Positions 6,692 through 62,010 of a stretch of DNA of 64,000 nt are shown here, one piece after another. Below the pieces are notes generated by a model. The model was not told the origin of the DNA, made no database searches, and worked only from the letters and a program-made list of their open reading frames with translations. Positions within the stretch are counted from its first letter, which is position 1, and every line of letters begins with the position of its first letter. The position numbers and the translations under genes are program-made. This stretch comes from Rhodovulum sulfidophilum DSM 1374 (lineage in GTDB: Bacteria; Pseudomonadota; Alphaproteobacteria; Rhodobacterales; Rhodobacteraceae): NCBI RefSeq assembly GCF_001633165.1, contig NZ_CP015420.1, positions 38,181 through 102,180 on the forward strand, given 5' to 3'.

Positions 6692-6720
6692 CTTCTTCTC
6701 CTCTTTGGATGAAAAATCGG

Positions 6721-20813: not shown

Positions 20814-21214
20814 TGTATCTGATCGATACCAACGTCATTTCCGCGGTGCGCCGTCCCGACCGCGCGCCGCAGGTCCGCGCCTGGCTGGCCGCGCGGCCCG
20901 AGCCCGAGCTGTTTCTCAGCGTCATCACCCTGGGCGAGATCGAGCGCGGCATCCGCCAGCAGGAGACCCGCGACCCCGGTTTCGCCCGCGACCTGCGGGT
21001 CTGGCTCGACCGGACCATGCTGGTCTTTGCCGACCGGCTGCTGCCCTTCGGCGCCGCCGAGGCGCGGATCTGGGGCCGGCTTTCGGCCGAGATCGGCCAT
21101 CCCGGCGCCGACCTGATGATCGCGGCAACCGCGCTTCAGCACGGCGCCACCGTGGTCACCGGCAATGTCTCGGATTTCGAACCGACCGGGGTCCCGATCG
21201 AGAACCCGTTCTGA
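20813..21214 (+). CDS. vapC: VapC-type PIN-domain toxin ribonuclease
   Basis: A 133-aa endoribonuclease that typically cleaves tRNA or rRNA when freed from its antitoxin. The acidic metal-binding residues are all present: Asp5 (YLIDTNVIS), Glu42 (LGEIERG), Asp100 (GADLMIAA) and Asp121 (NVSDFEPTG), so it should be active. It is next to the replication gene, where it can act as an addiction module that stabilises the replicon. It ends 10 bp from the convergent repB stop. Confidence 0.93.
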   Translation: MYLIDTNVISAVRRPDRAPQVRAWLAARPEPELFLSVITLGEIERGIRQQETRDPGFARDLRVWLDRTMLVFADRLLPFGAAEARIWGRLSAEIGHPGADLMIAATALQHGATVVTGNVSDFEPTGVPIENPF

Positions 21215-24416: not shown

Positions 24417-24417
24417 C

Positions 24418-37116: not shown

Positions 37117-39855
37117 ATGACCGAGATTACCATCGAGACCTATGCCGGCAAGATGAACCGTGCCGGATACGACGCCTTCCTGCAGGGCATGCGCCATGCC
37201 CGGGGCGAGAAGAACCGCCATGTCGATCTCAGCCACTGGCTGTTCCATTCGGTCTCGAACCAGAATGCCGACATCTCGGTCACGCTGAACGAGCTGGGGC
37301 TCGACCGCGGCCGGGTGCTGCGCGATCTCGACGCCGCCATGGCCGCGCTGCAGAAGAACGTGACCGAGACGCCCGGCATTTCCGAGGTGCTGTCGGATGC
37401 GCTGAACCATGCCTGGACCTATGCCACGCTGTTCTTCGGCGAGGCCCAGATCCGCACCGGCCATGTGCTGACCGCGCTTCTGAACGATCCGGGGCTCAAG
37501 CGGCACCTGCTGCAGCTGTCGAAGGTCTTTGCCGAGATCTCGGTCGACCGGCTGGGGCAGGATGCGCGCAGCCTCTGGGCCGCCTCCGAGGAAGAGGACA
37601 TGCGCCCGATGGACGGCTCGGGGCTGGCCGCGCGCGGCGAGGGCGCCGAGGGCGCGGCCGGGCGCGGCGGCGGGCAGAGCGCGCTGGGGCGGTTCGCCCA
37701 GGACATGACCGCCGAGGCCGAGGCCGGACGGCTCGACCGGGTGGTCGGGCGCGATGACGAGATCCGGCAGGTGATCGACGCGCTTCTGCGCCGCCGCCAG
37801 AACAACCCGATCCTGACCGGCGAGGCCGGGGTCGGCAAGACGGCGGTCGTCGAGGGCTTTGCCCAGAAGCTGGCCGCGGGCGAGGTGCCGCCCAAGCTGA
37901 AGGGCACGCGGCTTTACATGCTGGACATCCAGGCGATGCAGGCCGGGGCCTCGATGCGGGGCGAGTTCGAACAGCGGCTGAAATCGGTGATCGACGAGGT
38001 GCAGGCCTCGGATGTGCCGATCATCCTGTTCATCGACGAGGCCCATACCCTGATCGGCGCGGGCGGGCAGGCGGGCACGGGCGATGCCGCCAACCTGCTG
38101 AAACCGGCGCTGGCGCGCGGCACGCTCAGGACCATCGCCGCGACCACCTGGTCGGAATACCGCCAGCATATCGAGAAGGATCCGGCCCTGACCCGGCGTT
38201 TCCAGCCGGTCACCGTCGACGAGCCCGATGTCGGGACCTGCTGTGCCATGCTGCGCGGCATTCTCGGCCCGATGGAGGCCCATCACGGCGTGCGGATCTC
38301 GGATGAGGCAGTAGTGGCCGCCGTCCAGCTGTCGCAGCGCTACATCCCGGCGCGGCAGCTGCCCGACAAGGCGGTGTCGCTGCTGGACACCGCGGCGGCG
38401 CGGGTGGCGGTCAGCCAGGCCTCGGTGCCCGCGCGGATCGAGGATCTGAAGGCCCGGATCGACGCGCTGGACAGCGAGATCGCCGCCAAGCGCGGGGCGC
38501 AGGATCTGGGCGAGGATGCGGGCGAGCGGATCGCCGAGCTGGAGGCCGACCGGGCGGAGGCCGGCCAAGACCTGGCGCGGCTGGAAGAGCTTCACGACGA
38601 GCAGAAGGCGCTGGTCGAGCAGATCCTCGGGCTCCGCGCCCGGATCGCGGGCGCGGCTGACGGCGCGGCCGGTGAAGACATGGCCGGTGACGACATGGCC
38701 GGCGAGGCCGGGACGGAGGACGGCGCGGCGGGCGAGGACAAAGAGCCGCTCGATATCGATGCCTTGCGGGCCGAGATGCATGAACGTCTTGCCACGCTTG
38801 AGGCGGGCGATCCCGAGACCCGGATGGTCGAGCCCCATGTCGGCGCCCAGACCGTGGCGCAGGTGATCTCGGACTGGACCGGCATCCCGACCGGGCGGAT
38901 GGTGCGCGACGAGCTGCAGGCGGTCCTGACCCTGAAGGACCATCTGCGCGAGCGGGTGGTGGGCCAGGACCATGCCCTTGCCGCCATCGCCCGGCGGATC
39001 GAGACCTCGCGCGCGGGGCTGGCCAATCCCGAGAAGCCGATCGGGGTGTTCATGCTGTGCGGGCCCTCGGGCGTCGGCAAGACCGAGACCGCCATCGCGC
39101 TGGCCGAGGCGCTGTATGGCGGCGCGCAGAACATGATCACCATCAACATGTCGGAATTCCAGGAGGCCCATACCGTCAGCCTGCTGAAGGGCGCGCCGCC
39201 CGGCTATGTCGGCTATGGCGAGGGCGGGCGGCTGACCGAGGCGGTGCGGCGCAAGCCCTATTCGGTGGTGCTGCTCGACGAGGTCGAGAAGGCGCATCCC
39301 GATGTGCACGAGATCTTCTTCCAGGTCTTCGACAAGGGCTGGATGGAGGATGGCAACGGCCGCCGCATCGATTTTCGCAATACCCTGATCCTGCTGACCT
39401 CGAATGTGGGCACCGACACCATCATGGCGATGGCCGAGGACGGCCGGACGCGGCCCGATCTGGACGAGGTCACGGCGGCGCTGAAGCCGCGCCAGCTCGA
39501 GGTCTTCCCGCCCGCGCTCCTGGGCCGGGTGGTCTCGATCCCCTATCTGCCGCTCTCGGCCGAGGGGCTGGCGGCCATCGTCCGGCTGAAGCTTTCGGCG
39601 GTCGAGGCCCGGATGCGGGGCGCCCATGGCGCCGAGCTTGTCTATGGCGACGCGGTCATGGACCATATCGTCGATCAGTGCCACGACCCCGACAGCGGCG
39701 GGCGGATGATCGACAACATCATCACCAATACCATCCTGCCCGACCTCTCGCGCGAGGTGCTGGGGCGGATGGTGTCAGGCGAGGGCATCGCGCGGGTCGA
39801 GATCCTGCTGCAAGACGGCGCGCTGGCCTACAGCTTCGAAGGAGAAAACGCGTGA
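37117..39855 (+). CDS. clpV: T6SS sheath-recycling AAA+ ATPase ClpV (TssH)
   Basis: A 912-aa double-AAA+ disaggregase that dismantles contracted TssBC sheaths. The N-terminal Clp-N-like domain covers about residues 1-160. AAA-1 has Walker A at 235-243 (GEAGVGKTA) and FIDEAHTLIGAG. AAA-2 has Walker A GPSGVGKTE starting at 649 and LLDEVEKAHPDVHE. The coiled-coil middle region carries an Ala/Gly/Glu/Asp-rich insertion (about 512-546, 38650-38755) that I do not expect in other ClpV proteins. The stop overlaps the next gene by 4 bp (GTGA). Confidence 0.95.
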   Translation: MTEITIETYAGKMNRAGYDAFLQGMRHARGEKNRHVDLSHWLFHSVSNQNADISVTLNELGLDRGRVLRDLDAAMAALQKNVTETPGISEVLSDALNHAWTYATLFFGEAQIRTGHVLTALLNDPGLKRHLLQLSKVFAEISVDRLGQDARSLWAASEEEDMRPMDGSGLAARGEGAEGAAGRGGGQSALGRFAQDMTAEAEAGRLDRVVGRDDEIRQVIDALLRRRQNNPILTGEAGVGKTAVVEGFAQKLAAGEVPPKLKGTRLYMLDIQAMQAGASMRGEFEQRLKSVIDEVQASDVPIILFIDEAHTLIGAGGQAGTGDAANLLKPALARGTLRTIAATTWSEYRQHIEKDPALTRRFQPVTVDEPDVGTCCAMLRGILGPMEAHHGVRISDEAVVAAVQLSQRYIPARQLPDKAVSLLDTAAARVAVSQASVPARIEDLKARIDALDSEIAAKRGAQDLGEDAGERIAELEADRAEAGQDLARLEELHDEQKALVEQILGLRARIAGAADGAAGEDMAGDDMAGEAGTEDGAAGEDKEPLDIDALRAEMHERLATLEAGDPETRMVEPHVGAQTVAQVISDWTGIPTGRMVRDELQAVLTLKDHLRERVVGQDHALAAIARRIETSRAGLANPEKPIGVFMLCGPSGVGKTETAIALAEALYGGAQNMITINMSEFQEAHTVSLLKGAPPGYVGYGEGGRLTEAVRRKPYSVVLLDEVEKAHPDVHEIFFQVFDKGWMEDGNGRRIDFRNTLILLTSNVGTDTIMAMAEDGRTRPDLDEVTAALKPRQLEVFPPALLGRVVSIPYLPLSAEGLAAIVRLKLSAVEARMRGAHGAELVYGDAVMDHIVDQCHDPDSGGRMIDNIITNTILPDLSREVLGRMVSGEGIARVEILLQDGALAYSFEGENA

Positions 39856-40886
39856 CCCAATGTTTTGTCGACGATGCCGGCGTCAGCTGGAGCTATGACC
39901 AACAGGCCGCGCTGCGCCTGATCGCGCATTATGCCCGGCTGAGGGCGATGAACGAGACGACCCGGGTCGTGACCTCGCGCGACAGCCTGATCCAGAAGCT
40001 CTACCTCGCGCGCGAGCTGGCCAATGTCGAAACCGACGTCAACCGGATGCTGGCGCGCAAGACCGAGATCGAGGAGGTCGAGGGCCGCCGCTTTGCCACG
40101 CTGATGCTGGGCGCGGCCGGGGATGCCCAGGCCTATCTGATCGGGCTGAGGCGCGAGACCGACCGGCTGATGAGCGCCAACCAGTCGATCTACCGCTCGG
40201 CCCAGGACATCAACCAGGCCGCCATCGACCATGCCGAAACCGCGATCAAGGTGGCCAAGGGGGTGCGCGACAGCTCGGTGCTGACGCTGGGCGTGATCGC
40301 GACCGTCGCGACCGGCGGCACCACCATCGCGGTGGCTTCGGGCGCGGGCGCGGGGCTGTCGGCGACGGCGACCTATCAGGATACCGGATCGGCCTCGAAG
40401 GCGGCGATCAAGGGCGGGCTGTTCCTCCTGCCGCTGGGCACCCGGCAGATCACCGGGGCGGCCACGGCCGCGGGGGCCTCGCCGACCATGACCGCGGCGA
40501 TGAGCCTTGCAATCGATACCGGCGCCGAGACCTTCGAGGGTGTCTATGTCAACGATGCCACGCTGGAACGGGCGCTGAGCGCGGCCCTGATCAACCAGGT
40601 CAGCGGTCGCTATGTCGGCGCGCTGGCTAAGGAGAATACCCGCTGGATGGGCCAGCGCCTGCGCGGCGCGGTCCGGCTTCTGGACAATCATGGCGGGCAG
40701 ATGTCGAACCGCGCCTATCCCTTCCTCTCGGAGATGGGCGGCAAGCTGACCCAGGAGGCGATCAAGGTGAGCCCGGGCGAGACGCCCGCCGGCACCGGCC
40801 CCGGTTCCGCCGCGAGGGCCGCGCAGGCGCAGGCGCGCGATACCGCCAGCCTCTGGGTGATGCGCGAGGTGATGCGGCGGCTCTGA
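39852..40886 (+). CDS. Unknown T6SS-locus protein with Gly/Ala-rich hydrophobic core; possible effector
   Basis: A 344-aa protein read from a GTG that overlaps the clpV stop, so it is made with the T6SS machine. I recognise no family. Residues 1-140 are helical and charged with coiled-coil character (NVETDVNRMLARKTEIEEVE). Residues 141-225 form a Gly/Ala/Thr-rich hydrophobic region (SSVLTLGVIATVATGGTTIA, then GGLFLLPLGTRQITGAATAA) that could insert into a membrane. The C-terminal 110 residues are charged. There is no signal peptide. Options are a membrane-acting effector, a chaperone-like cargo protein or an unknown structural part. No clear immunity gene is adjacent. Confidence 0.75.
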   Translation: MTQCFVDDAGVSWSYDQQAALRLIAHYARLRAMNETTRVVTSRDSLIQKLYLARELANVETDVNRMLARKTEIEEVEGRRFATLMLGAAGDAQAYLIGLRRETDRLMSANQSIYRSAQDINQAAIDHAETAIKVAKGVRDSSVLTLGVIATVATGGTTIAVASGAGAGLSATATYQDTGSASKAAIKGGLFLLPLGTRQITGAATAAGASPTMTAAMSLAIDTGAETFEGVYVNDATLERALSAALINQVSGRYVGALAKENTRWMGQRLRGAVRLLDNHGGQMSNRAYPFLSEMGGKLTQEAIKVSPGETPAGTGPGSAARAAQAQARDTASLWVMREVMRRL

Positions 40887-40896
40887 GGCCCGCGTC

Positions 40897-42633
40897 TCAG
40901 CCGGTCGCGAGGATCGCGTCGACGGTTTCGCGGTAGCGGCGGATCTCGGGCGAGACCACGGCGGGGGCGGCGGTGCCGGTCATCTTGCGGTCGGCCCAGG
41001 CCAGCAGCTCGCCGATGGTCTTGCCGGTCAGGAACGGGTTTGCGCTGACCACGGCCGTGCCCATGATTTCGGCCACCCCGGCCGCGGGATCGGCGGAAAG
41101 CGCGCGGTTGGCGCCCTCGGCGCCGAGGAAATGCGCCAGATACAGCCGCCCCGGGGTCAGCCCATGGCCCCGGGCGGCCAGATAGGCGGCATTCTCGCGG
41201 GCCAGGGCATAGACCATCTCGACACTCAGGACCGGATCGGTCCTGAGCGCCAGCAGCGCCGCGCGGTCCATCCGGGCGGCCAGCTCGGGATGGTGCTCGC
41301 GCATCATCCGAAGCCAGGTCGAGGAGATGAACTGCCCCAGCCCGAGCGCGCTTGACAGCGGGTTCTTCGCATCCGCCCGGCCGCCGCTTTCGACATGGAC
41401 GATGCGGGCGACGAGGGTCTCGACCGCGGCGTCGTCGTCGATCCCGGCGGTGGCGCCCGCCAATGATCCTGTCCCGGCGCAGGCATGGCCGCCCGCGGGC
41501 ATCGGCAGTACATAGCAGCCGCTGCGCCCGTCCAGCCCGACATAGAACAGCCGTGCCGCGCCGCCGGGCCCCGGCCGGGTCGCGTAAAGCACCCGCAGCC
41601 GCTGGTCGGGCGCGGCCGGGCGACCCAGATCCATGCGCTGTGCCAGCAGCACGATCAGCTCGCCGGTCAGGTCGGGGCCGAGCCCGGCGCCGAGTGCCGC
41701 GCCATAGACCGCATCGAGCAGCCGGGGCGGGGCCTTGGGCGGGGTCCGGCCCTCGCTGGCAAGGTCGCGGTCGGCCCAAGGGTCGGCGGCGCGGGCATAG
41801 CGACCGGCGCCAAGCCGGGCCAGCGTCGTCAGATAGCCCCCGGCGCCGTAAAGCGAAAGCTGCAGCAGCTCGGCTTCGGGTTCGGGGCCGGTCCCGGATC
41901 GGGTGCCGCCGGGCCGGAGCCGCAGCGCGGCCAGCCGGGGCGGATCGGCCAGCGTCGGCAGCGCCCCGGTCGCGGCGCTGGCGGCCTCGGACCCGAGCCC
42001 GGCGCCCGTCAGTGCCGTCGTCAGGTCGGCGCCGGGCCCGAGCCTCAGCAGGCTGTCGGCGAAGAAGGGGTGGCGGGCGGCCTCGGGCAGAAGGCCCAAG
42101 GCAAGATCGCCGGGCGCGCTGCCGCTGCGCCGGGCCTGGGCAAGGGCGCGGCTGCGGCGGGCCTGGTAAAGCGCCAGATCCTCGCGGCTCGAGGGCGGGT
42201 CGAGCGCGCGCGGCCCGCTGCCGGGGCCGAGCCCGACCTCGATCAGGGTCAGCCGGTCGGGGGCGGGCGGGCCCGCGCGACCGGGTTCGAAACCCGGCGG
42301 GCCGGGCAGGGTGCGCGCGGGGGCCGAAGGCCCGGCCGAGAGCCGCAGCACCATCGGATCGCGCGGCAGACCGCGCAGCGCCAGCGACGGGTCGGGCGCT
42401 GGGGGTGTTTCCGCGTCCGGCTCGGCCTCGGGCACCATGGCGAGATCGTCGCCGGTGGCGATGGCGGGCGGCGTTTCGGGGCGGTCTCGGGTCAGCCGCC
42501 ATCCGGCCGTGGCCAGCGTCAGTGCAAGCAGGCCCAGCAGGACCGGCCGGATCAGTCGCCGCCGCCGCCGGGCCCGGGCGCGGGCGGCGGCGGCGCGAAA
42601 GGCGGGATCGACGCCGAAACCGGGCGGTTTCAC
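40897..42633 (-). CDS. Membrane-anchored lytic transglycosylase (SLT domain)
   Basis: A 578-aa protein with a GTG start at 42633 that overlaps the preceding gene by 4 bp; a longer frame to 43389 is an artefact through the neighbouring gene. The N-terminus is cytoplasmic and Arg-rich, followed by one membrane helix (PVLLGLLALTLATAGW, about residues 28-43). A Pro-rich periplasmic stretch leads to a domain around RLFYVGLDGRSGCYVLP. The C-terminal SLT domain starts near VARIVHVESGGRADAKN (catalytic Glu in HVESGG) and has SSALGLGQFISSTWL. It probably opens peptidoglycan locally for the T6SS membrane complex, as dedicated murein hydrolases do in other T6SS. Confidence 0.88.
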   Translation of the reverse strand: MKPPGFGVDPAFRAAAARARARRRRRLIRPVLLGLLALTLATAGWRLTRDRPETPPAIATGDDLAMVPEAEPDAETPPAPDPSLALRGLPRDPMVLRLSAGPSAPARTLPGPPGFEPGRAGPPAPDRLTLIEVGLGPGSGPRALDPPSSREDLALYQARRSRALAQARRSGSAPGDLALGLLPEAARHPFFADSLLRLGPGADLTTALTGAGLGSEAASAATGALPTLADPPRLAALRLRPGGTRSGTGPEPEAELLQLSLYGAGGYLTTLARLGAGRYARAADPWADRDLASEGRTPPKAPPRLLDAVYGAALGAGLGPDLTGELIVLLAQRMDLGRPAAPDQRLRVLYATRPGPGGAARLFYVGLDGRSGCYVLPMPAGGHACAGTGSLAGATAGIDDDAAVETLVARIVHVESGGRADAKNPLSSALGLGQFISSTWLRMMREHHPELAARMDRAALLALRTDPVLSVEMVYALARENAAYLAARGHGLTPGRLYLAHFLGAEGANRALSADPAAGVAEIMGTAVVSANPFLTGKTIGELLAWADRKMTGTAAPAVVSPEIRRYRETVDAILATG

Positions 42634-43361
42634 CGGAACACCCCCAGCGAGGGCGCCAGCCGGATCTGCGGCGGGGGGGCCTCGGATCGTTCGGGCGCGG
42701 TCTGGCGGCGGGGCGTCGGCGCGCGCGCGGTCGTGGGCGCTGGCGGGGCGGGGCAGGCCACGTCCTCGGCCGCGACGATCCGGCGGAACAGCCCGGGCGA
42801 GGGGGCGTCGGGGGCGCGGCCCAGCCCGCGTTCGGCGAAATAGCGCGCGACGGCGGCGCGCGAGCCCTCGCCCCAGAGCCCGTCGATGCCGCCGCGATAG
42901 CAGTTCATCCGCGCCAGCTCGGTCTGGATCGCGCGGGGCAGGGCGTCTTCGGGCGGATCGAGCGCGCCCGCGGCGACGAGGCGGGCAAAGCCCTCGGGGT
43001 CGTCCTGCCTCAGCCGGGTGCGGGTGGCGAGGTCCGACCAGACCGGCAGGTCCTCGGTGTCGGGGTTGAGCAACCCGACGATGACCGAGGGCTCGGGCAG
43101 GCCCTCGGCGCGGGGCAGGGCGGCGAGGCTTTGGCGCGGCGGGGGGGTGAAGATCTCGACCGCCGGGGCCTCGGGGCGCGCGCTCAGGACCGGGGCGGCC
43201 GACGCGGCGGGCGCGACCCGGACGGGGGCGACGCGGCGCGGGGCGGGCGCGGTCTCTGCCTGCTGTGGCGTTTCGCTGGCCAGCGCGATGGCGGGCAACA
43301 GCCACAGGGCCAGCCCGGCCGCGGCCGGCCAGCGCGTTCTGGCTTGTCCTCCGATCCTCAT
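42630..43361 (-). CDS. Secreted peptidoglycan-binding protein
   Basis: A 243-aa protein with a signal peptide (WPAAAGLALWLLPAIALA, residues about 11-28). The central region is Pro/Ala-rich. A PG_binding_1-like motif appears in AIQTELARMNCYRGGIDGLW followed by GEGSRAAVARYF (about residues 148-178). The stop overlaps the transglycosylase start, so the two are made together and likely act on the same wall site. It is read opposite to the T6SS genes that flank it. Confidence 0.82.
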   Translation of the reverse strand: MRIGGQARTRWPAAAGLALWLLPAIALASETPQQAETAPAPRRVAPVRVAPAASAAPVLSARPEAPAVEIFTPPPRQSLAALPRAEGLPEPSVIVGLLNPDTEDLPVWSDLATRTRLRQDDPEGFARLVAAGALDPPEDALPRAIQTELARMNCYRGGIDGLWGEGSRAAVARYFAERGLGRAPDAPSPGLFRRIVAAEDVACPAPPAPTTARAPTPRRQTAPERSEAPPPQIRLAPSLGVFR

Positions 43362-43452: not shown

Positions 43453-43866
43453 TCACTCGGCGTCGGGATGCAGCGTCAGCGTGAAATCGGCGGCATTGCC
43501 GGTATCGATCTCGCGGAACCGGGCCTCGAGATAGCCGCGGGTCAGACAATCGGTCGCGCCGCGGATCTCGAACCGGCCGGGGCCGACGCACATCGGGGTG
43601 GCGCCTTCCAGCAGCACCCGGCCGAAGGCATCCAGCGCGAAGACATAGAGAAAGCGCGCATCGAGCGGCCGGTCGAGCGGGCTGGCGCATTCGCCGGGCC
43701 CGATCAGCCACCAGCCCGAGGTTCCGAAGCCGTTCTCGCCGGGCTGGCCGAGGGCAAGGTTGACCTCGTCGAGGCTGCGGTTGCAGACCGAAAACCCCGC
43801 CAGCGCGGGTGCGGCCGCCAGCAGGGCGCAAAGCAGGGCAGGACAGGCGAGCGGGGCACGGGGCAT
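43453..43866 (-). CDS. Secreted DUF1036 protein
   Basis: A 137-aa protein. The start at 43866 (MPRAPLACPALLCALLAAAP) gives a clean signal peptide; the longer open frame to 44163 runs through the divergent gene. The mature part has the DUF1036 pattern (GFSVCNRSLDEVNLALG, then GWWLIGPGECASPLD, YVFALDAFGR). Cysteines at C28, C58 and two later positions probably form disulphides. The function of DUF1036 is unknown. It heads the minus-strand set DUF1036, peptidoglycan-binding protein and transglycosylase. Confidence 0.85.
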   Translation of the reverse strand: MPRAPLACPALLCALLAAAPALAGFSVCNRSLDEVNLALGQPGENGFGTSGWWLIGPGECASPLDRPLDARFLYVFALDAFGRVLLEGATPMCVGPGRFEIRGATDCLTRGYLEARFREIDTGNAADFTLTLHPDAE

Positions 43867-44023: not shown

Positions 44024-44542
44024 ATGATACGCGCCACTGCACTCGGTTCGCTGCTGGTCGGCCTGACGGTCGCGGGCGGCATCGCTCTGGCCCTCGGCCA
44101 TGGTCTGGTTTCGGAACGCCGCGCGGCGGTTTCGGCGCCCACCCCGGCCGTGCCTGCCGCCACCCCGGTCGCGGGGGCGCGGATTGCCAGCTCGGCCCCG
44201 GCCGATCCGACGCTGCCGGTGTTCCGGCGGCGGACGGTCCCGGCGATACCCGCCGGGGCGACAGAGGCCGCGCGGCCGGCCCCGGCCCTGCCGGTCCCGG
44301 CGGCGCCTCGGGGATCCGCGCTTCTGCCCCAGCGCGACGGCCCGAGGCTGGTGTCGATCGAGGCGCCCCGGCCGGGTCCCGGCCATGGTCCCAGGATCGG
44401 TGTCCGGCTTGCGCCCCGCTTTGATGCGGCGGCCGATATGGCGCCGCCGCCGCGCCCGCCATTCCGGCAGGATGTCGCGGCCGGGGCCGGGTTGCCCGCG
44501 CAGGTCGACAGCGAGAATTACCTGATCGGGGTCTATCGCTGA
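44024..44542 (+). CDS. Hypothetical membrane-anchored Pro/Ala-rich protein
   Basis: A 172-aa protein. The start at 44024 (MIRATALGSLLVGLTVAGGI) gives an N-terminal membrane helix or signal; longer frames from 43760 overlap the divergent DUF1036 gene. The rest is low-complexity Ala/Pro/Arg sequence ending in AQVDSENYLIGVYR. No family is recognised. It precedes the secreted 149-aa protein and the ExbBD module and may be part of that unit. No lipobox is present, so it is not an obvious TssJ. Confidence 0.6.
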   Translation: MIRATALGSLLVGLTVAGGIALALGHGLVSERRAAVSAPTPAVPAATPVAGARIASSAPADPTLPVFRRRTVPAIPAGATEAARPAPALPVPAAPRGSALLPQRDGPRLVSIEAPRPGPGHGPRIGVRLAPRFDAAADMAPPPRPPFRQDVAAGAGLPAQVDSENYLIGVYR

Positions 44543-44633: not shown

Positions 44634-45083
44634 ATGATCCGTATCCCGCGTTTCGTTCCGGTGCTGACCGCGCTGGCCCTGGCCCCGGTTGGGCCCGCCC
44701 TTGCCCAGGGCGTCCCTGATACCGCCTCGGGTATGCTGGTCGAGCTGAACGCCGCCGCCGAGACGCCGGCGGGCGCCTGCCGCCTGACCTATGTCGCCAC
44801 CAACCGCAGCGAGACCGGCCTGTCCGAGATCGCCTATGAGATCGCCGTGTTCGATGCCGAGGGGATCGTCAGCCAGCTTCTGGTGCTCGATTTCGGCGCG
44901 ATGCCCCCCGGCAAGACCCGGGTGGTGCAGTTCGACATGCCGGACCAGCCCTGCGAGGCGATCTCGCGGATCGTGGTCAATGCAGCACCCGGCTGTGTCC
45001 GGGCCGAGGACGGCGCCCAGAGCCCTGTCTGCCTCGACGGGCTCGAGACCCGCGCCCGCGGCGCGATCCAGTTCGGTCTCTGA
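44634..45083 (+). CDS. Small secreted protein preceding the ExbB gene
   Basis: A 149-aa protein with a signal peptide (VPVLTALALAPVGPALAQG, cleaved after ALA). The mature part looks like an immunoglobulin-type beta sandwich (ACRLTYVATNRSETGLSEI, then YEIAVFDAEGIVSQLLVLDF) with four cysteines (ACRL, QPCEA, PGCVR, PVCLD), probably two disulphides. Family not recognised. It is 31 bp upstream of exbB, so it is likely a periplasmic component of the same unit. Confidence 0.75.
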   Translation: MIRIPRFVPVLTALALAPVGPALAQGVPDTASGMLVELNAAAETPAGACRLTYVATNRSETGLSEIAYEIAVFDAEGIVSQLLVLDFGAMPPGKTRVVQFDMPDQPCEAISRIVVNAAPGCVRAEDGAQSPVCLDGLETRARGAIQFGL

Positions 45084-45114: not shown

Positions 45115-45759
45115 ATGCCCAACCTGTCCGAGTCCGGCCTGCTGATGCCGGCCACGCTTGCGGTCTTCGCCGCGCTCGGGGTGCTGTCGGTGATGGCGCT
45201 GACCATCTCGATCTGGAAGGCCTGGCAGTTCCGCCGCATGGGCGTCGGCCGCCGGGCGCTGGCCGAGACGGTGCTGGATTGCTGGCTGTCGGGCCGGGTC
45301 GAGGAGGCGATGGAACGGGCCGTGGCCGGGCGCGCGGTGCTGGGCCGGGTGCTGCGCGCGGTGATGTCGGCGGCGCAGGCGCGGCCTGGCGAGACCGGCT
45401 ATGCCGAGGAGCTGGGCCGCCAGACCGCGCTGATCGAGCTGGCGCGGATGGGCGAGCGGATGCGCGCGCTGGAACTGATCGTCAGCTCGGCGCCGATGCT
45501 GGGGCTGCTAGGCACCGTGGTCGGCATGATCGACGCCTTCTCGGCGCTGTCGCTGGCGGCCGAGGCCGCCGATCCGGCCAGCCTCGCGGCCGGGATCTGG
45601 ACCGCGCTGACCACGACCGCGGCGGGGCTGGCGCTGGCGCTGGTCGCCAATGCGCTGACGACCTGGTTCGAGGGCCGGATCGAGGCCGAGCGCACGCTGC
45701 TGGAGGCGGCGATCTCGGCCGCGATCTATGGCCGGGTCGATTCCGACGGCGGGGTCTGA
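45115..45759 (+). CDS. exbB: MotA/TolQ/ExbB proton-channel subunit
   Basis: A 214-aa inner-membrane stator protein that with ExbD converts proton flow into mechanical work. I chose the ATG at 45115 with a TAGGAGAA ribosome binding site. Three membrane helices: about 8-32 (MPATLAVFAALGVLSVMAL), about 122-144 (APMLGLLGTVVGMIDAFSAL) and about 160-184 (TALTTTAAGLALALVANAL). The conserved polar Thr residues of the last two helices, which line the proton path in TolQ/ExbB, are present. The length is typical. Two ExbD genes and a TonB-like gene follow directly. Confidence 0.92.
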   Translation: MPNLSESGLLMPATLAVFAALGVLSVMALTISIWKAWQFRRMGVGRRALAETVLDCWLSGRVEEAMERAVAGRAVLGRVLRAVMSAAQARPGETGYAEELGRQTALIELARMGERMRALELIVSSAPMLGLLGTVVGMIDAFSALSLAAEAADPASLAAGIWTALTTTAAGLALALVANALTTWFEGRIEAERTLLEAAISAAIYGRVDSDGGV

Positions 45760-45765
45760 GCCGCG

Positions 45766-46224
45766 ATGGCGCGGCCGCCGCTGCTTGGGGCGCCCAAAAG
45801 GGCGCGCCGCCCGCGCTTTGCGCTGACCGCGCTGGCCGATACCATGTTCCAGCTTCTGATCTTCTTCATGCTGTCCTCGGGGCTGACGCCCTATGCGCTC
45901 TTGCCGCTGACGCCGGCCGCGGGCAACCGGCTGGCCGAGACCCGGGCGCCGGGGGGCGAGGGCGCCGAGACGGCGGGGGCGGTGCTGCCCGCGGGCACCC
46001 GGCTCTGGCAGATCGGGCCGGGCAGCCTGACCGCGGGCGGCCAGCGCTTCGGTTTCGACGAGATCGGCGCGCTGGCACGGGCGCTGGCGGCGCGCGATCC
46101 GGTGCCGCCGGTGGTGCTGCTGGCGGGGCCGGGCGCGCGGGTGCAGGACCTGACGACCGCGCTCGACCGGCTGCGGGCGGCGGGGCTGACCGAGGTCCGG
46201 CTCGGCCTCGGCGGGGAGGGCTGA
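45766..46224 (+). CDS. exbD: ExbD/TolR-family protein 1 (intact proton-site Asp)
   Basis: A 152-aa stator partner of ExbB with one N-terminal membrane helix (LTALADTMFQLLIFFMLSSG). Asp25 sits where the essential protonatable Asp of ExbD/TolR lies (TPxxDxMxxLLIxFM pattern). The C-terminal periplasmic domain (GPGARVQDLTTALDRLRAAG, then EVRLGLGG) has the ExbD fold pattern. It is separated by 6 bp from exbB and 4 bp from the second exbD. Confidence 0.9.
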   Translation: MARPPLLGAPKRARRPRFALTALADTMFQLLIFFMLSSGLTPYALLPLTPAAGNRLAETRAPGGEGAETAGAVLPAGTRLWQIGPGSLTAGGQRFGFDEIGALARALAARDPVPPVVLLAGPGARVQDLTTALDRLRAAGLTEVRLGLGGEG

Positions 46225-46228
46225 GTCG

Positions 46229-46654
46229 ATGCGGCGGGGGACGATCCTGCCGGTGCGGCGGCGCCGGGACGGGCCCGACACGGCGATTGCCATCGTCAAT
46301 CTGGTGCTGCTGCTGATCCTGTTCTTTCTGGTCAGCGGCGGGCTCTGGAACCGCGACGCGCCGACCGGGCTGCGGCTGGCCGAGACCCGCGCCTTCGATC
46401 CGGCGCGGCTGCCCCGGCCGCTGCTGGAACTGACGCCCGACGGTCGGCTGGCGCTGGACGGGCAGGCGGTGGCGCTGGCCGGGCTGCCCGAGGCGCTGGC
46501 GGGCGCCTCCCGGGTGCATCTGCTGATCGATCGCAGCGCCCCGGCGCGGCAATTGCTGCATCTGCTGGGCTCGGCCGGGTTCGACGGGCGCGAGGTGGTT
46601 CTGGTGACGGTGCGCGCGGGCGGCGGCGGGGCCGGGCGCGGGGCAGGGCAATGA
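46229..46654 (+). CDS. ExbD/TolR-family protein 2 (Asp replaced by Asn24)
   Basis: A 141-aa second ExbD-like protein. The membrane helix reads AIAIVNLVLLLILFFLVSGG: Asn24 is at the position of the essential Asp, so this subunit should not carry protons. The periplasmic part (GASRVHLLIDRSAPARQLLH, then GREVVLVTVRAGG) keeps the ExbD fold. It probably pairs with ExbD 1 as a heterodimer inside the ExbB pentamer. The stop overlaps the TonB-like start by 4 bp (ATGA). Confidence 0.85.
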   Translation: MRRGTILPVRRRRDGPDTAIAIVNLVLLLILFFLVSGGLWNRDAPTGLRLAETRAFDPARLPRPLLELTPDGRLALDGQAVALAGLPEALAGASRVHLLIDRSAPARQLLHLLGSAGFDGREVVLVTVRAGGGGAGRGAGQ

Positions 46655-47859
46655 GCTATCTGCCCTATGGACCCGAGCCCCGGCGCGGCTGGGCCCTGGC
46701 CGGGCTTGCGGCGCTGGCCGCGCATGGTCTGCTGGGGGCGGCGGTCGCGCTCTGGATCGGGCAGGACCCGGCGTCGCCGGGCCCGCCCGCGCCGCGGTTC
46801 GAGGTGACGCTGGAGCGGCTGGACAGCGACACGCTGGCCGGGCTGCGGCTGAGCGAGGGCCGGGCCAATGCCGCCGATCCGGCGCTGGGGCCGGGCGAGG
46901 ACAGCGAAGAGGGCGAGGACGGCCCGGCGCCCGCGACCGGACCGGACAGCCGGGTCGAGGACCGTGTCGAGGATCGGGCTGAACCTCGGGCCGAGATGCG
47001 GGAGGGGATCGCCGGAGAGACGCCATCGTCCTCCGCCCCGTTATCGGCCGCCGTGCCGCAACCGGTGCCGTCACATCGGCTTTCGCCGGTGATGGCGCGG
47101 TCGGGGGTGGCGGCGGTTGCGGTCGCGCCGGATCGAATCGCCCCGGTCGGCACCGGCGCGGGGGCTGGCGCCGGATCCGGCACGGCGTCGGGCACGGGCA
47201 TCGCGCGGCGCCCGGCTTTCGCGTCGTCCGAACCCCGCGCCCGCGATCTGGCGGCGGCGGCGCTGATTCGTCGCATCCGCGAGACCCCGGCCCCCGACTG
47301 CCTGCTGGCATTGCCCCGGCGCGATGCCGAGGGCGGTGCAGGGCTCGACCTGATGGCCGCCTCGGAGGCCGGGATGGCCGATTATGCCGGGCGGCTTCTG
47401 ACCGGCGATCTGGCCGGAACCGCCCAGCGGCGCCGCCTGATCGATCCGCGGCAATGCCCCGTGCTCGAGCTGCTGCGCGACAGCCCCGATTATCCCGCGA
47501 CGCGGCTGGGGCTGGGGCTCGACCGGACCGAGATCGTGTCGGGCGGGCGCTTGACCGGCCGCCTGCGCGGGGTCGGCGGGCGCTATGTATTGTTGCTTCT
47601 GATCGACAATAACGGCGTGGTCCAGGACCTGCAGCGCTTCCTGTCCTTTGCCGGGAACCGGGCGAAATTCGAGGTGCCGGTATCCTTGGCCGGACCCGCG
47701 CGCGACACGTCGCAACTGCTGCTTGCGGTGGCGGCGGACGGGCCGGTCTCGGGGCTGCGCGCCCAGATCGGGCGTCGCGCCGACGAGGTCTTCTCGTCCG
47801 GGCGCCGGACCGCGCTGGGGGCGGCCGCGCTGGCGCTGGCGGGATTCGATCTGCGCTGA
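46651..47859 (+). CDS. TonB/TolA-like transducer with atypical C-terminal domain
   Basis: A 402-aa protein with one N-terminal membrane helix (GLAALAAHGLLGAAVALWIG, about 19-38) after a short cytoplasmic part, then a long acidic/Pro/Ala-rich linker (about 50-190) like those of TonB and TolA. The folded C-terminal 210 residues (ALIRRIRETPAPDCLLALP, then GGRYVLLLLIDNNGVVQDLQ) are not a recognisable TonB C-terminal domain; the last piece resembles domains found in proteins with a DUF4384-like sheet. The position after exbB-exbD-exbD implies it is driven by that motor. Its outer-membrane or wall target is unknown. Confidence 0.78.
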   Translation: MSYLPYGPEPRRGWALAGLAALAAHGLLGAAVALWIGQDPASPGPPAPRFEVTLERLDSDTLAGLRLSEGRANAADPALGPGEDSEEGEDGPAPATGPDSRVEDRVEDRAEPRAEMREGIAGETPSSSAPLSAAVPQPVPSHRLSPVMARSGVAAVAVAPDRIAPVGTGAGAGAGSGTASGTGIARRPAFASSEPRARDLAAAALIRRIRETPAPDCLLALPRRDAEGGAGLDLMAASEAGMADYAGRLLTGDLAGTAQRRRLIDPRQCPVLELLRDSPDYPATRLGLGLDRTEIVSGGRLTGRLRGVGGRYVLLLLIDNNGVVQDLQRFLSFAGNRAKFEVPVSLAGPARDTSQLLLAVAADGPVSGLRAQIGRRADEVFSSGRRTALGAAALALAGFDLR

Positions 47860-54807: not shown

Positions 54808-56139
54808 ATGTCCCGTTTCAGCAAGGTCGCCTGGAAAGAAGGTTTGTTCCTGCAGCCGCATCACCTGCAGCAGGCCGACCGCCATCTCGAGCATCTGATC
54901 CGCGCGCAGGTGGCCGCGCTGTCGCCCTATCCCTGGGGTCTGGCCGAGCTGCGTTTCGATCGCGACATGCTGCAACAGGGCCGGATCGGGCTGTTGGCGG
55001 CCGCGGGCACGATGCCCGACGGCACCGCCTTCGAGGCTCCCGGCGCCTCGCCGCTGCCGGTCGCGGCCGAGGTGCCCGAGGACGGGGCCGGGCTCGATGT
55101 CTGGCTGACCCTGCCCGATGCGCCGGTCGACGGCCAGGAGGTCGCCCCCGCCGCCGCCGATGCCGCCACCCGCTATGTGCTGGGCCGCGAGACGGTGGCC
55201 GACAATGCCGCCGCCGCGCGCTCGGAACAGGTGCTGGAAGTGGCCCATCCGCGGCTGGAGCTGGCGCTGCGCAAGACGCCCCGCCCGGGCTATCAGTGCC
55301 TCAGGCTCGGCCGGGTGCTCGATCTGCGCGACGGCATCGTCACGCTTGACGACCGGGTGCCGCCGACCGCGCTGCGGCTTGCGGTGCATCCGGCCTATGA
55401 CGGCTATCTCGGCCGGGTGATCGGCTGGATCGAATCGAAGCTCGACACGCTGGCGCGCTATGCCGCGGATCCCTCCTCGGGTGGCGGAATGCAGGCGGGC
55501 GACTATCTGATGCTGATGCTTCTGAACCGCGAGCTGCCGGTGCTTCGGCATCTGAAATCCATGGCCAGCGTGCATCCCGAGCGGCTTTACGAAAAGCTGG
55601 TCGGGCTGGCGGGCGAGCTGGCCACCTTCGATCAGGGCGAGCGCCGCGCCCCGGCCTACGAGGCCTATCGCCATGACGATCCCAAGGCCAGCTTTCCGCC
55701 GGTGGTGGCCGATATCCAGCGGCTGCTGGCGCGTGACGTCGGCCGCGCGGTCAGGCTGCCCCTGCAGGAGGTGCGGGCCAATTCCTATGCCGCGCTGATC
55801 AACGACCGGAACCTCTTCGCTCAGGCGACCTTCGTGCTGGAGGTCAGTTCCGGCCTGCCGCTGGCCGAGGTCCAGCAGCAGTTCCCGCAGCTTTGCAAGG
55901 TCGGTCCCTCGACCCAGATGAAGACCATCATCAACAACAACCTGCCGGGCATCGGGCTGGTGCATCTGCCCAACCCGCCGCGGCAGATCCGGGTGGTCTC
56001 GACCAATGTCTATTTCCTGCTCGACCGCTCGACCCCGCTCTGGAGCGAGTTTTCCAGCGCGCCCGCGATCGGGATGCATTTCGCGGGCAACTGGCCCGAT
56101 CTCAAGCTTGAACTCTGGGCGGTGCCGGAGGGGGCGTGA
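54808..56139 (+). CDS. tssK: T6SS baseplate-membrane linker TssK
   Basis: A 443-aa trimeric protein that docks the baseplate to TssL and TssM. The diagnostic start is VAWKEGLFLQPHHLQQADRH. Other landmarks are LMLMLLNRELPVLRHLKSM, HPERLYEKLVGLAGELATF and INNNLPGIGLVHLPNPPRQ near the end, all standard for VasE/ImpJ. Normal length. The stop overlaps the tssL ATG by 4 bp. Confidence 0.96.
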   Translation: MSRFSKVAWKEGLFLQPHHLQQADRHLEHLIRAQVAALSPYPWGLAELRFDRDMLQQGRIGLLAAAGTMPDGTAFEAPGASPLPVAAEVPEDGAGLDVWLTLPDAPVDGQEVAPAAADAATRYVLGRETVADNAAAARSEQVLEVAHPRLELALRKTPRPGYQCLRLGRVLDLRDGIVTLDDRVPPTALRLAVHPAYDGYLGRVIGWIESKLDTLARYAADPSSGGGMQAGDYLMLMLLNRELPVLRHLKSMASVHPERLYEKLVGLAGELATFDQGERRAPAYEAYRHDDPKASFPPVVADIQRLLARDVGRAVRLPLQEVRANSYAALINDRNLFAQATFVLEVSSGLPLAEVQQQFPQLCKVGPSTQMKTIINNNLPGIGLVHLPNPPRQIRVVSTNVYFLLDRSTPLWSEFSSAPAIGMHFAGNWPDLKLELWAVPEGA

Positions 56140-57680
56140 TGGCAGATAACGACGACGATGACGACAAGACCGTGTTCGGGCAGCCGCTGCCGCCGCCGCC
56201 GCTGACCCCGCATCCGCTGACCTATCCGCCGGGCTCGGGCTGGAACGTCTATCCGCAGGAGTCCTCCGGCACCGAGCGCACCGCCTTCGGCCAGACCGCG
56301 TCCCCGCCCGGGACCGGCGTGCCGCCGACGCCCCGCTCGCCGGGGCCGCATCCGTTCTATCAGCCGGGCACCGGCCAGCGCAGCGCGGCGGCCGGGATCT
56401 TCCCCGAGATCCGCCGCCCCGAGGCCGCGCCGCGCCCGGCGGCCCAGGCGCGGATCGCGCTGGACGATGCGCTTCGGGCGGCCGATGCGGGCCGCGGTGC
56501 CGCCTCTAACCCGCTTCTGGCCGAGGCGACCCAGCTTCTGATCCTGCTGGGGCGGCTCCGGACCGGGCTGGTCGAGATGCAGGCCGGGCCGCTGATCGAC
56601 CATGTCACCCGCGAGATCGACGATATCGAGCGGCGCTGCCTGGCCGTCGGGCTGCCCGCCTCCGAGGTGCGGGACGCGAAATACGCGCTTTCGGCCACCG
56701 CCGACGACATCGTGCAGAACCTGCCCGGCGCCGACCGGGCGATGTGGCTGCAATATTCGATGGTGGCGCGGTTCTTCGGCGAACGCTCGTCCGGGGTCGG
56801 CTTCTTCCGCAAGATGGACGAGGCGATGAAGGCGCCGGGGCAGCGCTATCACCTGCTTGAACTGATGCTGGTCTGCCTGTCGCTGGGATTCGAGGGCCAG
56901 TACCGGGCGATGCCCTCGGGTGCGGCCGAGCTGGCGCGGATCCGCAGCGCCATCTACGAGACCCTGCGCCGGATCTCGCCGCGGCCCGATGACGATGTCT
57001 CGCCGCATTGGACGGCGGTGCCGCTGGATGCGCGCAGGCGCGGCGGGCAGACCCCGCTCTGGGTGATCGCGGCCATCGCCGCGGCGATGCTGGTGGCGCT
57101 GTTCGCCACGCTCTCGACGCTGCTGACGCGGCAGGGGGCGACGGTGCGCGACGACATCCTGGCGCTGCATGCCGGACAGCCCGAGATCGCGATCGAGCGC
57201 ACCGAGCCGGTGATCGCGCCCTATCAGGCGCCCGAGACGACGCAGATGGACCGGATCCGCACCGCGCTGGCCGAACCGCTCGAGACGGGCCGGGTCGAGG
57301 TCGATCAGGTAAATGACTGGGTGCTGGTGCGGCTGCGCGAGGCGCTGCGCTTCGCCACCGGCTCGGCCGATCTCGGGAACGGATCCGCGCCGCTGCTGGC
57401 CGAGATCGCGGCGATGCTCGATGGCGAGGACGGCCCGGTGCGGGTGGTCGGCCATACCGACAGCGTGCCGATGTCGGGGCGCGGCCGGTTCCGCAGCAAC
57501 CATGACCTGTCGCTGGCCCGGGCCGAGACCGTGGCCGAACGGCTGGGCGCTCTGGTCGCCGATCCGGCGCGGCTGAGTGCCGAGGGCAAGGGGGCGACCG
57601 ACCCGGTTGCCGGGAATGACACCCCCGAAGGCCGGGGGATGAACCGGCGTGTCGAGATCATGATACCGCGGGAGGACTGA
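56136..57680 (+). CDS. tssL: T6SS membrane protein TssL with OmpA-like peptidoglycan-binding tail
   Basis: A 514-aa protein. The N-terminal cytoplasmic tail (1-90) is acidic and Pro-rich with two similar Thr sites, DDKT12VFGQ and TERT49AFGQ. The DotU domain (about 120-285) includes NPLLAEATQLLILLGRLRTG and EIDDIERRC. One membrane helix follows (WVIAAIAAAMLVALFATLST, about 309-328). The periplasmic C-terminus is an OmpA/Pal domain with VVGHTDSVPMSG and SLARAETVAERLG that binds peptidoglycan. This evolved TssL form is common where TssJ is lacking. In Agrobacterium, TssL Thr14 is phosphorylated by PpkA and read by Fha, and T12 here is in the matching place. Confidence 0.95.
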   Translation: MMADNDDDDDKTVFGQPLPPPPLTPHPLTYPPGSGWNVYPQESSGTERTAFGQTASPPGTGVPPTPRSPGPHPFYQPGTGQRSAAAGIFPEIRRPEAAPRPAAQARIALDDALRAADAGRGAASNPLLAEATQLLILLGRLRTGLVEMQAGPLIDHVTREIDDIERRCLAVGLPASEVRDAKYALSATADDIVQNLPGADRAMWLQYSMVARFFGERSSGVGFFRKMDEAMKAPGQRYHLLELMLVCLSLGFEGQYRAMPSGAAELARIRSAIYETLRRISPRPDDDVSPHWTAVPLDARRRGGQTPLWVIAAIAAAMLVALFATLSTLLTRQGATVRDDILALHAGQPEIAIERTEPVIAPYQAPETTQMDRIRTALAEPLETGRVEVDQVNDWVLVRLREALRFATGSADLGNGSAPLLAEIAAMLDGEDGPVRVVGHTDSVPMSGRGRFRSNHDLSLARAETVAERLGALVADPARLSAEGKGATDPVAGNDTPEGRGMNRRVEIMIPRED

Positions 57681-61324: not shown

Positions 61325-62010
61325 CGGTTGCGGGACGGGCAAGCATCGGGCTTCTGGGCAAGCATCCGGGCTATGGCGATTTTTTGCGCGCGGGGCTGTC
61401 GGACGGGGTGGCCGACGGGTTGACCGGCTGGATCGATGCCACGCTGGCCGAGCTGCGCGACGAGCTGGGCCAGGACTGGGGGCCGTTCTGGGACGGCGCG
61501 CAGGAGCTGCGCTTCCGGGTCGGGCGCGCGGTTCTGGGGCGGACGCTGGCGGGGGTCCTGCGGCCCTCCTGCGACCGGGTCGGGCGGCGCTATCCGCTGC
61601 TGCTTCTGACCGAGGGGGCCGAGGTGGCGCCGCCGACCGCCTCCGATGCCAGCCAGGATCTGTGGGAGGCGCTGTCGGCGCATCTCGACGGGGCCGAGCC
61701 GGGGCACGGGGCGCGGGCGCTTCTGCGCGGGCTCGATCTGGCCATCGAAGCCGAACCGGCCGAACGGGCGGCCGAAGGGCCGGTGGTTTGGGCGCATCGG
61801 CCCGATGGCGATCTTGGCGCGCTGTTGCGTGCGGCGCGGCCGGTCGAGGCCGAGCGGGCCGAGCTGTTGCGGGCACAGTTCTGGACCCCGGGCAACGGGC
61901 CCTGCGCCGCGCAATGGCTGGCCGGAACCGGGCTGCCCGAAGCCAGGGCTCTGGCCTGGATGCTGGCGGGGGTGCCCTGTGATCGTGGCGATGCGGGAGC
62001 GCAGCAATGA
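61321..62010 (+). CDS. tagF: T6SS post-translational repressor TagF
   Basis: A 229-aa protein of the TagF/ImpM family. The signature is near the start (GLLGKHPGYGDFLRAG, then WIDATLAELRDELG) with RRYPLLLLTEG in the middle. In Pseudomonas and Agrobacterium TagF holds T6SS off, in part by sequestering Fha, and is relieved by the phosphorylation route. Here it sits between tssM and pppA with 4-bp overlaps on both sides. It stands alone, without the PppA fusion seen in some species. Confidence 0.93.
   Translation: MTVAGRASIGLLGKHPGYGDFLRAGLSDGVADGLTGWIDATLAELRDELGQDWGPFWDGAQELRFRVGRAVLGRTLAGVLRPSCDRVGRRYPLLLLTEGAEVAPPTASDASQDLWEALSAHLDGAEPGHGARALLRGLDLAIEAEPAERAAEGPVVWAHRPDGDLGALLRAARPVEAERAELLRAQFWTPGNGPCAAQWLAGTGLPEARALAWMLAGVPCDRGDAGAQQ

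What the first reader, a model, noticed from the sequence alone, without database searches (positions are those of the whole stretch)
45115..47859. ExbB-ExbD-ExbD-TonB-like motor embedded in a T6SS locus
A complete proton-motive stator module (ExbB, two ExbD and a TonB/TolA-like transducer) lies between clpV and tssK, in the same direction as the T6SS genes and preceded by two small envelope proteins. Core T6SS has no known ExbBD requirement. The transducer's folded end is not a standard TonB domain, so its partner may be new. Possible roles: energising the TssJ-less membrane complex across the wall, driving the adjacent peptidoglycan enzymes, or maturing the adjacent autotransporter.
Basis: partly seen in the sequence, partly recalled or inferred. 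Interest (0 to 1): 0.85.

Follow-up and report, generated by a model that had tools for sequence, protein, structure and literature searches.

The report
Proton motor attached to T6SS loci
A bacterial plasmid carries a small proton-driven motor (relatives of ExbB, ExbD and TonB) inside the gene cluster of a toxin-injecting nanomachine, and most of the related genomes examined that own such a machine carry a motor of this kind too, which suggests that in these bacteria the machine is powered or steered by the energy of the cell membrane.

Summary
In detail: exbB 45115-45759, exbD1 45766-46224, exbD2 46229-46654 and a 402-aa TonB-like transducer 46651-47859 lie inside a plasmid-type T6SS locus close to Rhodovulum sulfidophilum. 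It is not a local accident. Of 80 loci found by the transducer's end domain alone, 79 hold the whole block. Of 390 genomes of the order, 111 have TssK; 85 of these have this motor or a second version (same gene order, DUF4384 transducer), 69 of 86 motor genomes within 60 kb of TssK. The transducer lacks TonB_C. Its 206-aa end is homologous to the periplasmic end of the locus's own T6SS kinase (hhalign E 6.5e-22); the second version resembles kinases of its T6SS subtype (E 8.5e-8). I read it as a proton-driven accessory of TssJ-less T6SSs acting on a periplasmic partner shared with the kinase; what it does there is inferred. Main rival: a motor for the giant autotransporter (in 49 of 51 genomes with the domain; three genomes keep autotransporter, kinase and motor without that T6SS). 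Against strict need: one genome lacks the four motor genes but keeps T6SS, kinase and autotransporter, and 26 of 111 TssK genomes showed neither transducer.

The parts
45115..45759 (+). ExbB-like stator (214 aa)
   Evidence: PF01618 E 2.5e-23; T134 and T167 conserved in 81 of 81 aligned rows
45766..46224 (+). ExbD1 (152 aa), keeps the membrane aspartate (D25)
   Evidence: PF02472 E 3.5e-9; Asp in 82 of 84 aligned rows, the other 2 are cut off there
46229..46654 (+). ExbD2 (141 aa), asparagine (N24) where ExbD1 has the aspartate
   Evidence: PF02472 E 0.0026, below cut-off; Asn in 83 of 85 rows, 1 Ser, 1 Asp in a misaligned broken copy
46651..47859 (+). TonB-like transducer (402 aa): membrane anchor, linker, 206-aa end domain at 47239-47856
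   Evidence: no Pfam/NCBIfam; alignments A1 and A7; fold
44634..45083 (+). small exported protein, called sec here (149 aa), predicted fold nearest to E. coli IrmA
   Evidence: model pLDDT 89.8; Foldseek E 2.2e-5 to 5ek5; detected in 74 of 80 loci
44024..44542 (+). small membrane-anchored protein (172 aa), poorly conserved
   Evidence: reading frame; homologues only in 2 of 100 loci by phmmer; no Pfam
43453..43866 (-). exported DUF1036 protein
   Evidence: PF06282 E 9.6e-29; detected in 66 of 80 loci
42630..43361 (-). putative peptidoglycan-binding envelope protein
   Evidence: PF01471 E 0.012, below cut-off; homologues detected in 71 of 80 loci
40897..42633 (-). membrane-anchored putative wall enzyme (SLT-like; M23 in Sagittula and Paracoccus counterparts)
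   Evidence: PF01464 E 0.0029, below cut-off; M23 E 3.7e-37 in L022 and 2.3e-11 in L021; detected in 58 of 80 loci
39852..40886 (+). hypothetical protein overlapping the end of clpV
   Evidence: no Pfam; annotated counterpart in L018
37117..39855 (+). clpV/tssH
   Evidence: TIGR03345 1184.6 bits
48063..54731 (+). giant autotransporter (2222 aa), partner candidate specific to this subtype
   Evidence: PF12951 PATR E 2.6e-6; conserved C-terminal 330 aa (A6)
54808..56139 (+). tssK
   Evidence: PF05936 E 1.1e-133
56136..57680 (+). tssL with OmpA domain
   Evidence: PF09850, PF00691
57686..61324 (+). tssM
   Evidence: PF14331, PF06761, PF06744
61321..62007 (+). tagF
   Evidence: PF09867 E 7e-21
62007..62786 (+). 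PP2C phosphatase
   Evidence: PF00481 E 1.1e-13
62783..64000 (+). T6SS Ser/Thr kinase, first part; the gene runs on at the other end of the same contig, where its membrane segment and end domain are read
   Evidence: counterpart in L019 is Pkinase E 8.4e-40

Best explanation
It is a dedicated proton-motive-force motor that serves the T6SS of Rhodobacterales. ExbB with an ExbD1/ExbD2 pair would form the proton-conducting stator (family knowledge; channel residues are conserved here). It moves a TonB-like transducer that reaches into the periplasm (inferred from layout). The end of the transducer is the same domain as the periplasmic end of the T6SS transmembrane kinase (shown by sequence profiles), so motor and kinase most likely dock on the same periplasmic part of the system (inferred). 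The most likely job is to couple membrane energy to activation or envelope passage of a T6SS that lacks the outer-membrane anchor TssJ, under control of the kinase/phosphatase pair (inferred).
For: 85 of 111 TssK genomes carry one of two motor versions. 47 of 48 genomes with the window-type transducer have TssK, against 111 of 390 overall. On the same contig within 60 kb of TssK: 35 of 48 (window type), 34 of 38 (second type). The second type lies next to tssA, with at most one gene between, in Parasedimentitalea, Leisingera M658 and Ruegeria conchae, and next to tssA or tssB in a third TssK class (G204, G428). Transducer end against kinase end of the window type: hhalign prob 99.4, E 6.5e-22 over 189 columns. 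Second type against kinases of its T6SS subtype: prob 94.4, E 8.5e-8 (4 kinases, 2 of them from loci with that motor, 2 from G026 and G435 without it). G026, G435 and G209, which keep the window-type motor without its T6SS, have another T6SS in which no second-type motor was detected, so help in trans is possible. In these three the genes are open and dN/dS is 0.08-0.37 (parts of some genes, dS near saturation). The transducer has no TonB_C; TonB proteins of the same genome have it.
Against: 26 of 111 TssK genomes showed neither transducer. Of these G425 has the window-type exbB-exbD-exbD at a contig end, G396 has an ExbB 30 kb from TssK and G412 a strong ExbB on another contig; the other 23 had no ExbB within 60 kb of TssK at E 1e-12 (22 plus G277). 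G277 lacks exbB-exbD-exbD-transducer exactly between sec and the kinase while tssK-tssL-tssM, kinase and autotransporter remain (L144). In one genus (4 genomes) the motor is over 1 Mb from TssK. Qingshengfaniella has the second-type motor with no tss gene annotated within 15 kb. The end domains of the two versions are not significantly alike (hhalign prob 1.0, E 0.056) and TonB-type ExbBs fall between their ExbBs. The second-type transducer was searched in 68 genomes, all with TssK, so it has no negative control; in plasmids it hit 24 records, of which I read the surroundings of 4 (3 with tss genes, 1 without). Counts are not corrected for kinship. No experiment.
Confidence: 0.5

Rival explanations
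1. The motor serves the giant autotransporter next to it: it powers display, stretching or movement of this surface protein, as GldLM does for SprB in Flavobacterium; the T6SS is a neighbour that profits from contact.
For: End domain (in transducer or kinase) and autotransporter barrel co-occur in 49 genomes (51 and 52 carriers among 390). G026, G435 and G209 keep autotransporter-PP2C-kinase facing the motor with tssK-tssL-tssM-tagF absent, open genes with dN/dS below 0.4, and no close copy of the window's sheath protein (TssC 51-52% identity against 62-69% in six genomes that have this T6SS).
Against: The autotransporter barrel (E up to 1e-10) is found in 1 (G288, elsewhere in the genome) of the 38 genomes with the second-type motor. 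It lies within 3 kb of tssK in 39 of 52 genomes, so it is itself a T6SS-locus gene. In one genus the motor is over 1 Mb from it. G277 has it without the motor.
Confidence: 0.22
2. The motor drives or gates wall enzymes (SLT/M23-like and peptidoglycan-binding proteins) so that the T6SS can pass the wall.
For: Homologues of the PG-binding gene in 71 and of the SLT-type gene in 58 of 80 loci, divergent from the motor; M23 domains in counterparts.
Against: The three T6SS-free loci have a caspase-type protein in that place; second-type loci have caspase and OmpA proteins. No link between transducer end and these enzymes is known or was found.
Confidence: 0.13
3. It is an ordinary TonB system for nutrient uptake that happens to be inserted in the locus.
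For: Its ExbB falls nearest to TonB-type ExbBs; the sec gene and the Asp/Asn ExbD pair are shared with a chromosomal exbB-exbD-exbD-tonB operon.
Against: The transducer lacks TonB_C, which four TonB proteins of such operons have; no TonB-dependent receptor is annotated in the 10 T6SS plasmid stretches read (gene tables incomplete); conserved with T6SS.
Confidence: 0.05

Closest known systems
ExbB-ExbD-TonB energiser
   Same: ExbB domain and channel residues, one ExbD with the membrane Asp, one-pass transducer with a membrane His and a linker
   Different: end domain is not TonB_C; the neighbours are T6SS and kinase genes, not receptors
TolQ-TolR-TolA
   Same: stator plus periplasmic transducer (recalled)
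   Different: no TolA end domain found; T6SS context; the genome's own TolQ served only as outgroup
GldL-GldM (type IX secretion and gliding)
   Same: a proton motor tied to a secretion system and a large surface adhesin (PMC8986121, abstract read)
   Different: different transducer and secretion system; here a kinase shares the end domain
PpkA/PppA threonine phosphorylation pathway of T6SS (recalled)
   Same: transmembrane Ser/Thr kinase and PP2C next to tssM-tagF
   Different: its periplasmic end is shared with a TonB-like transducer; I recall no described system with this
Roseobacter T6SS1 clusters of PMC9515649
   Same: TssJ-less T6SSs of the same order (section 12 read)
   Different: the main text has no mention of exb, tolQ or tonB

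Membership tests
ExbB/TolQ/MotA proton channel | PF01618 over cut-off and two conserved channel threonines (their role is recalled) | tested here: met
   82.6 bits against 22.9; T134 and T167 in 81 of 81 rows
ExbD/TolR, first copy | membrane Asp (equivalence to E. coli D25 is recalled) | tested here: met
   Asp in 82 of 84 rows, 2 cut off
ExbD/TolR, second copy | membrane Asp | tested here: not met
   Asn in 83 of 85 rows; PF02472 below cut-off
TonB | TonB_C end domain (PF03544/PF13103) | tested here: not met
   no such match (66 sequences); model is alpha/beta plus Ig-like sandwich
TonB | membrane anchor with conserved His (TonB His20 is recalled) | tested here: met
   11 of 11; rough scan 77 of 80 window type, 14 of 14 second type
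TonB | energises TonB-dependent receptors | not testable with these tools
   none annotated in 10 T6SS plasmid stretches
T6SS core component | present in every T6SS | tested here: not met
   85 of 111 TssK genomes; absent in G277
T6SS accessory | conserved linkage to tss genes across genera | tested here: met
   64 of 80 loci have a core tss gene in the fetched flank; of the other 16 genomes 14 have TssK
DUF4384 family | PF14326 over cut-off | tested here: not met
   none for the window type; met in the four second-type transducers scanned

The most novel reading that the evidence does not exclude
Rhodobacterales T6SSs are proton-powered at the envelope: a TonB-like arm takes over the anchoring or gating role of TssJ, and kinase and motor compete for, or hand over, the same periplasmic site, so that phosphorylation and membrane energy jointly license firing. 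This would have been built twice from ExbBD operons.
Probability: 0.22. Interest if true: 0.87.

Novelty: new variant of a known kind. Interest (0 to 1): 0.72.

Why it matters
T6SS is held to be powered by sheath contraction and the ClpV ATPase, with no stator (recalled). A dedicated proton motor in most TssK-bearing genomes of this order would give a new energy input or control point, bear on how TssJ-less systems deal with the outer envelope, and show how ExbBD motors are re-targeted by changing the arm's end domain. The domain shared by kinase and transducer makes it directly testable.

Tried and rejected
Autotransporter as the main partner: I leaned to this after (49 genomes shared; T6SS-free clusters) and demoted it when searches showed a second motor version in T6SS loci without that autotransporter. 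'The Asp/Asn ExbD pair is special to this motor': rejected, since chromosomal TonB-type operons of the genome and Sulfitobacter L023 have it too, while both ExbDs carry Asp in the two second-type loci aligned. 'The sec protein is specific to the autotransporter': rejected, since a homologue precedes a chromosomal TonB operon (E 1.2e-18). 'The second motor type is sister to the window type': not supported. Sequence searches of solved structures with the end domain and with sec gave nothing at E up to 10. Foldseek for the end domain gave only weak generic matches (best E 7.7e-4, TM 0.25).

Rows dropped before counts: from the 51-genome list, genomes with only a kinase-type or weak row (G277, G425, G300) were dropped, leaving 48 transducer genomes; from the 40 genomes, G412 and G294 (weak) and the kinase-sized second rows were dropped, leaving 38. 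The second-type search did not cover the other window-type genomes. A7 uses the window and 65 of 77 full-length loci, A8 the window and 40 of 72; the scan kept 80 of 93 relatives. Dividing TssK by Pfam bits into subtypes is my own device.
Full report
What is there. The finding's coordinates are exact: exbB 45115-45759, exbD1 45766-46224, exbD2 46229-46654 and a 402-aa protein 46651-47859, the last two overlapping by 4 bases. The window is the end of a 102-kb contig (G000:C3). In the plasmid collection the nearest ExbB is that of Rhodovulum sulfidophilum plasmid 1 (99.5% identical), which has the same block behind clpV. The contig is probably circular: the kinase gene cut at the window's end continues in frame at the contig's start. 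Around the block are clpV, tssK, tssL, tssM, tagF, a PP2C and a kinase on the same strand, a divergent group of DUF1036, peptidoglycan-binding and SLT/M23-like genes, and a 2222-aa autotransporter.

Is it a working motor? ExbB keeps both channel threonines in 81 of 81 aligned rows; ExbD1 keeps the membrane aspartate in 82 of 84 rows (two are cut off there); ExbD2 has asparagine in its place in 83 of 85 rows. The transducer has one membrane segment with an invariant histidine (11 of 11; 77 of 80 by a rough scan), as TonB has (recalled). Its end domain is not TonB_C: Pfam gave nothing for the window protein, and in 66 aligned sequences only scattered weak hits (at most 3 members, best E 0.017) to unrelated families, while TonB proteins of the same genome match PF03544/PF13103. 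The predicted structure (pLDDT 91.5) is an alpha/beta part followed by an Ig-like sandwich, with two cysteines invariant in the 66 sequences. Foldseek found only weak generic matches.

How widespread is the block? One scan of GTDB contigs with the end domain gave 93 relatives, of which the best 80 were kept. 79 of the 80 carry exbB, exbD1, exbD2 and transducer; the remaining one is cut by a contig end. A core tss gene lies within the fetched flank in 64 of 80; among the genomes of the other 16, 14 have TssK and 15 the autotransporter barrel, not always on the same contig. Of the 15 plasmid hits with 58% identity or more, I read the surroundings of 11, and each has tss genes nearby; the one weaker hit I read (38.9%, Sulfitobacter) is a TonB operon without tss genes. 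The orientation of the block relative to the tss genes varies (same strand in Rhodovulum, inverted in Paracoccus, convergent with kinase-PP2C-tagF-tssM-tssL-tssK in many roseobacters), so one frozen operon does not explain the linkage. In 289 genomes of the class 2 had the domain, both of the window's family.

Counts in 390 genomes of the order. TssK: 111. End domain: 51. Autotransporter barrel: 52 at E up to 1e-10. Overlaps are 49 for domain and autotransporter, 49 for domain and TssK, 49 for autotransporter and TssK (Fisher p 4e-56, 1e-28, 2e-27, not corrected for kinship). After dropping kinase-only and weak genomes, 48 have the window-type transducer, 47 of them with TssK (the other, G397, is a fragmented assembly); 31 have it within 15 kb and 35 within 60 kb of TssK on one contig, 5 have it on the same contig but over 1 Mb away, 8 share no contig.

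A second version. In G288 (the record NZ_CP127249, Parasedimentitalea psychrophila) a T6SS locus of another subtype has sec-exbB-exbD-exbD and a 520-aa transducer with DUF4384 (PF14326 E 8.2e-9) and a weak BON-like match. A search in 68 TssK genomes (62 without the window-type domain, plus G026, G435, G209, G294, G350, G000) found it in 40, strongly in 38; 34 of these 38 lie within 60 kb of TssK and the other 4 share no contig with it. Annotated examples sit next to tssA in Leisingera M658 and Ruegeria conchae; a third TssK class also has it (G428, G204); Qingshengfaniella has it with no tss gene annotated within 15 kb. Altogether 85 of 111 TssK genomes have one of the two versions. The ExbB tree puts the second type outside a group of window-type and TonB-type ExbBs (support 95); the window-type clade itself is weakly supported (ultrafast bootstrap 50; FastTree 0.82). 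Two separate recruitments to T6SS are the simplest reading, not a proved one.

The clue to the partner. The T6SS kinase of the window-type loci ends in a domain homologous to the transducer's end: hhalign prob 99.4, E 6.5e-22 over 189 columns. The window's own kinase shows it too (read by eye). The second-type transducer end matches kinases of its T6SS subtype (prob 94.4, E 8.5e-8), though only 2 of the 4 kinases used come from loci with that motor. The end domains of the two versions are not significantly alike. Two public records name the transducer 'serine/threonine protein kinase'. A kinase and a motor arm that share their outer end most likely bind the same thing.

Natural deletions. G026, G435 and G209 keep autotransporter-PP2C-kinase facing the motor with no tssK-tssL-tssM-tagF between and no tss gene in the 20 kb read (two weak TssL hits are OmpA proteins); dN/dS is 0.08-0.37. 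They have another T6SS (TssC 51-52% identical) in which no second-type transducer was found. So either the motor works for the autotransporter and kinase, or it helps the other T6SS in trans. Conversely G277 lacks exactly exbB-exbD-exbD-transducer and keeps sec, kinase, tssKLM and autotransporter (L144; no window-type ExbB found). These cases limit any strong claim, as do the 26 TssK genomes without a detected transducer; of these, G425 has window-type exbB-exbD-exbD genes at a contig end and G396 an ExbB 30 kb from TssK.

Mechanism. Shown: gene content, conserved channel residues, domain sharing with the kinase, wide linkage to T6SS. Inferred: that the stator conducts protons, how far the arm reaches, that arm and kinase share a partner, and that the outcome is activation or envelope passage of a T6SS without TssJ. 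Absence of tssJ from roseobacter T6SS1 clusters is stated in PMC9515649 (section 12 read); none of the window proteins scanned matched a TssJ family, but I did not search the genome for TssJ. TagQRST-PpkA signalling and the role of TssJ are recalled.

What is known. Nine answered searches of the open PMC library (listings of at most 15 titles each) showed no title or abstract start that describes an ExbBD module in a T6SS locus; passages seen in PMC9515649, PMC9113992, PMC5749857 and PMC5217246 do not either. Most subscription papers and preprints are not covered. The abstract of PMC8986121 gives the nearest functional parallel, GldLM.

Verdict. I file it as a new variant of the ExbBD-type energisers, attached to T6SS and its kinase; not a TonB system by membership, and not a core T6SS part.

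Noticed in passing
L136 about 6348-9306, L137, L138 (same genome, chromosome); L023: Chromosomal exbB-exbD-exbD-tonB operons of this order also pair an Asp-bearing with an Asn-bearing ExbD (read by eye; L023); the meaning of this asymmetric pair is not explained.
   Followed up: partly
window 44634-45083: The small exported protein before exbB is predicted to fold like E. coli IrmA (5ek5, Foldseek E 2.2e-5), has 4 invariant cysteines in 41 aligned sequences, and a homologue precedes a chromosomal TonB operon: perhaps a general ExbBD partner in this order.
   Followed up: partly
L113, L114, L115, L139, L169: Caspase-family (Peptidase_C14) proteins, some with weak peptidoglycan-binding matches, lie next to the motor in T6SS-free and second-type loci.
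   Followed up: no
L172 (AP014801) and L025 (Leisingera S132): Public annotation names the transducer 'serine/threonine protein kinase', though no kinase domain is present; in L018 and L022 it is 'hypothetical protein'.
   Followed up: yes
L035, L036 (Leisingera JC1, ANG-M7): These strains carry the window-type motor; the small second T6SS clusters that PMC9515649 reports for them may be this subtype. JC1 has a TssK of matching score on another contig, so its cluster may be complete but split.
   Followed up: partly
window 23013-25512: ParA- and ParB-like partition genes near the T6SS, in line with a plasmid.
   Followed up: no
window 20553-21214: By eye only: a Phd-like/PIN (VapC-like) toxin-antitoxin pair near the T6SS.
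   Followed up: no
L093: In the Paracoccus cavernae contig several tss genes and exbD2 are split over frames (draft errors or decay).
   Followed up: no
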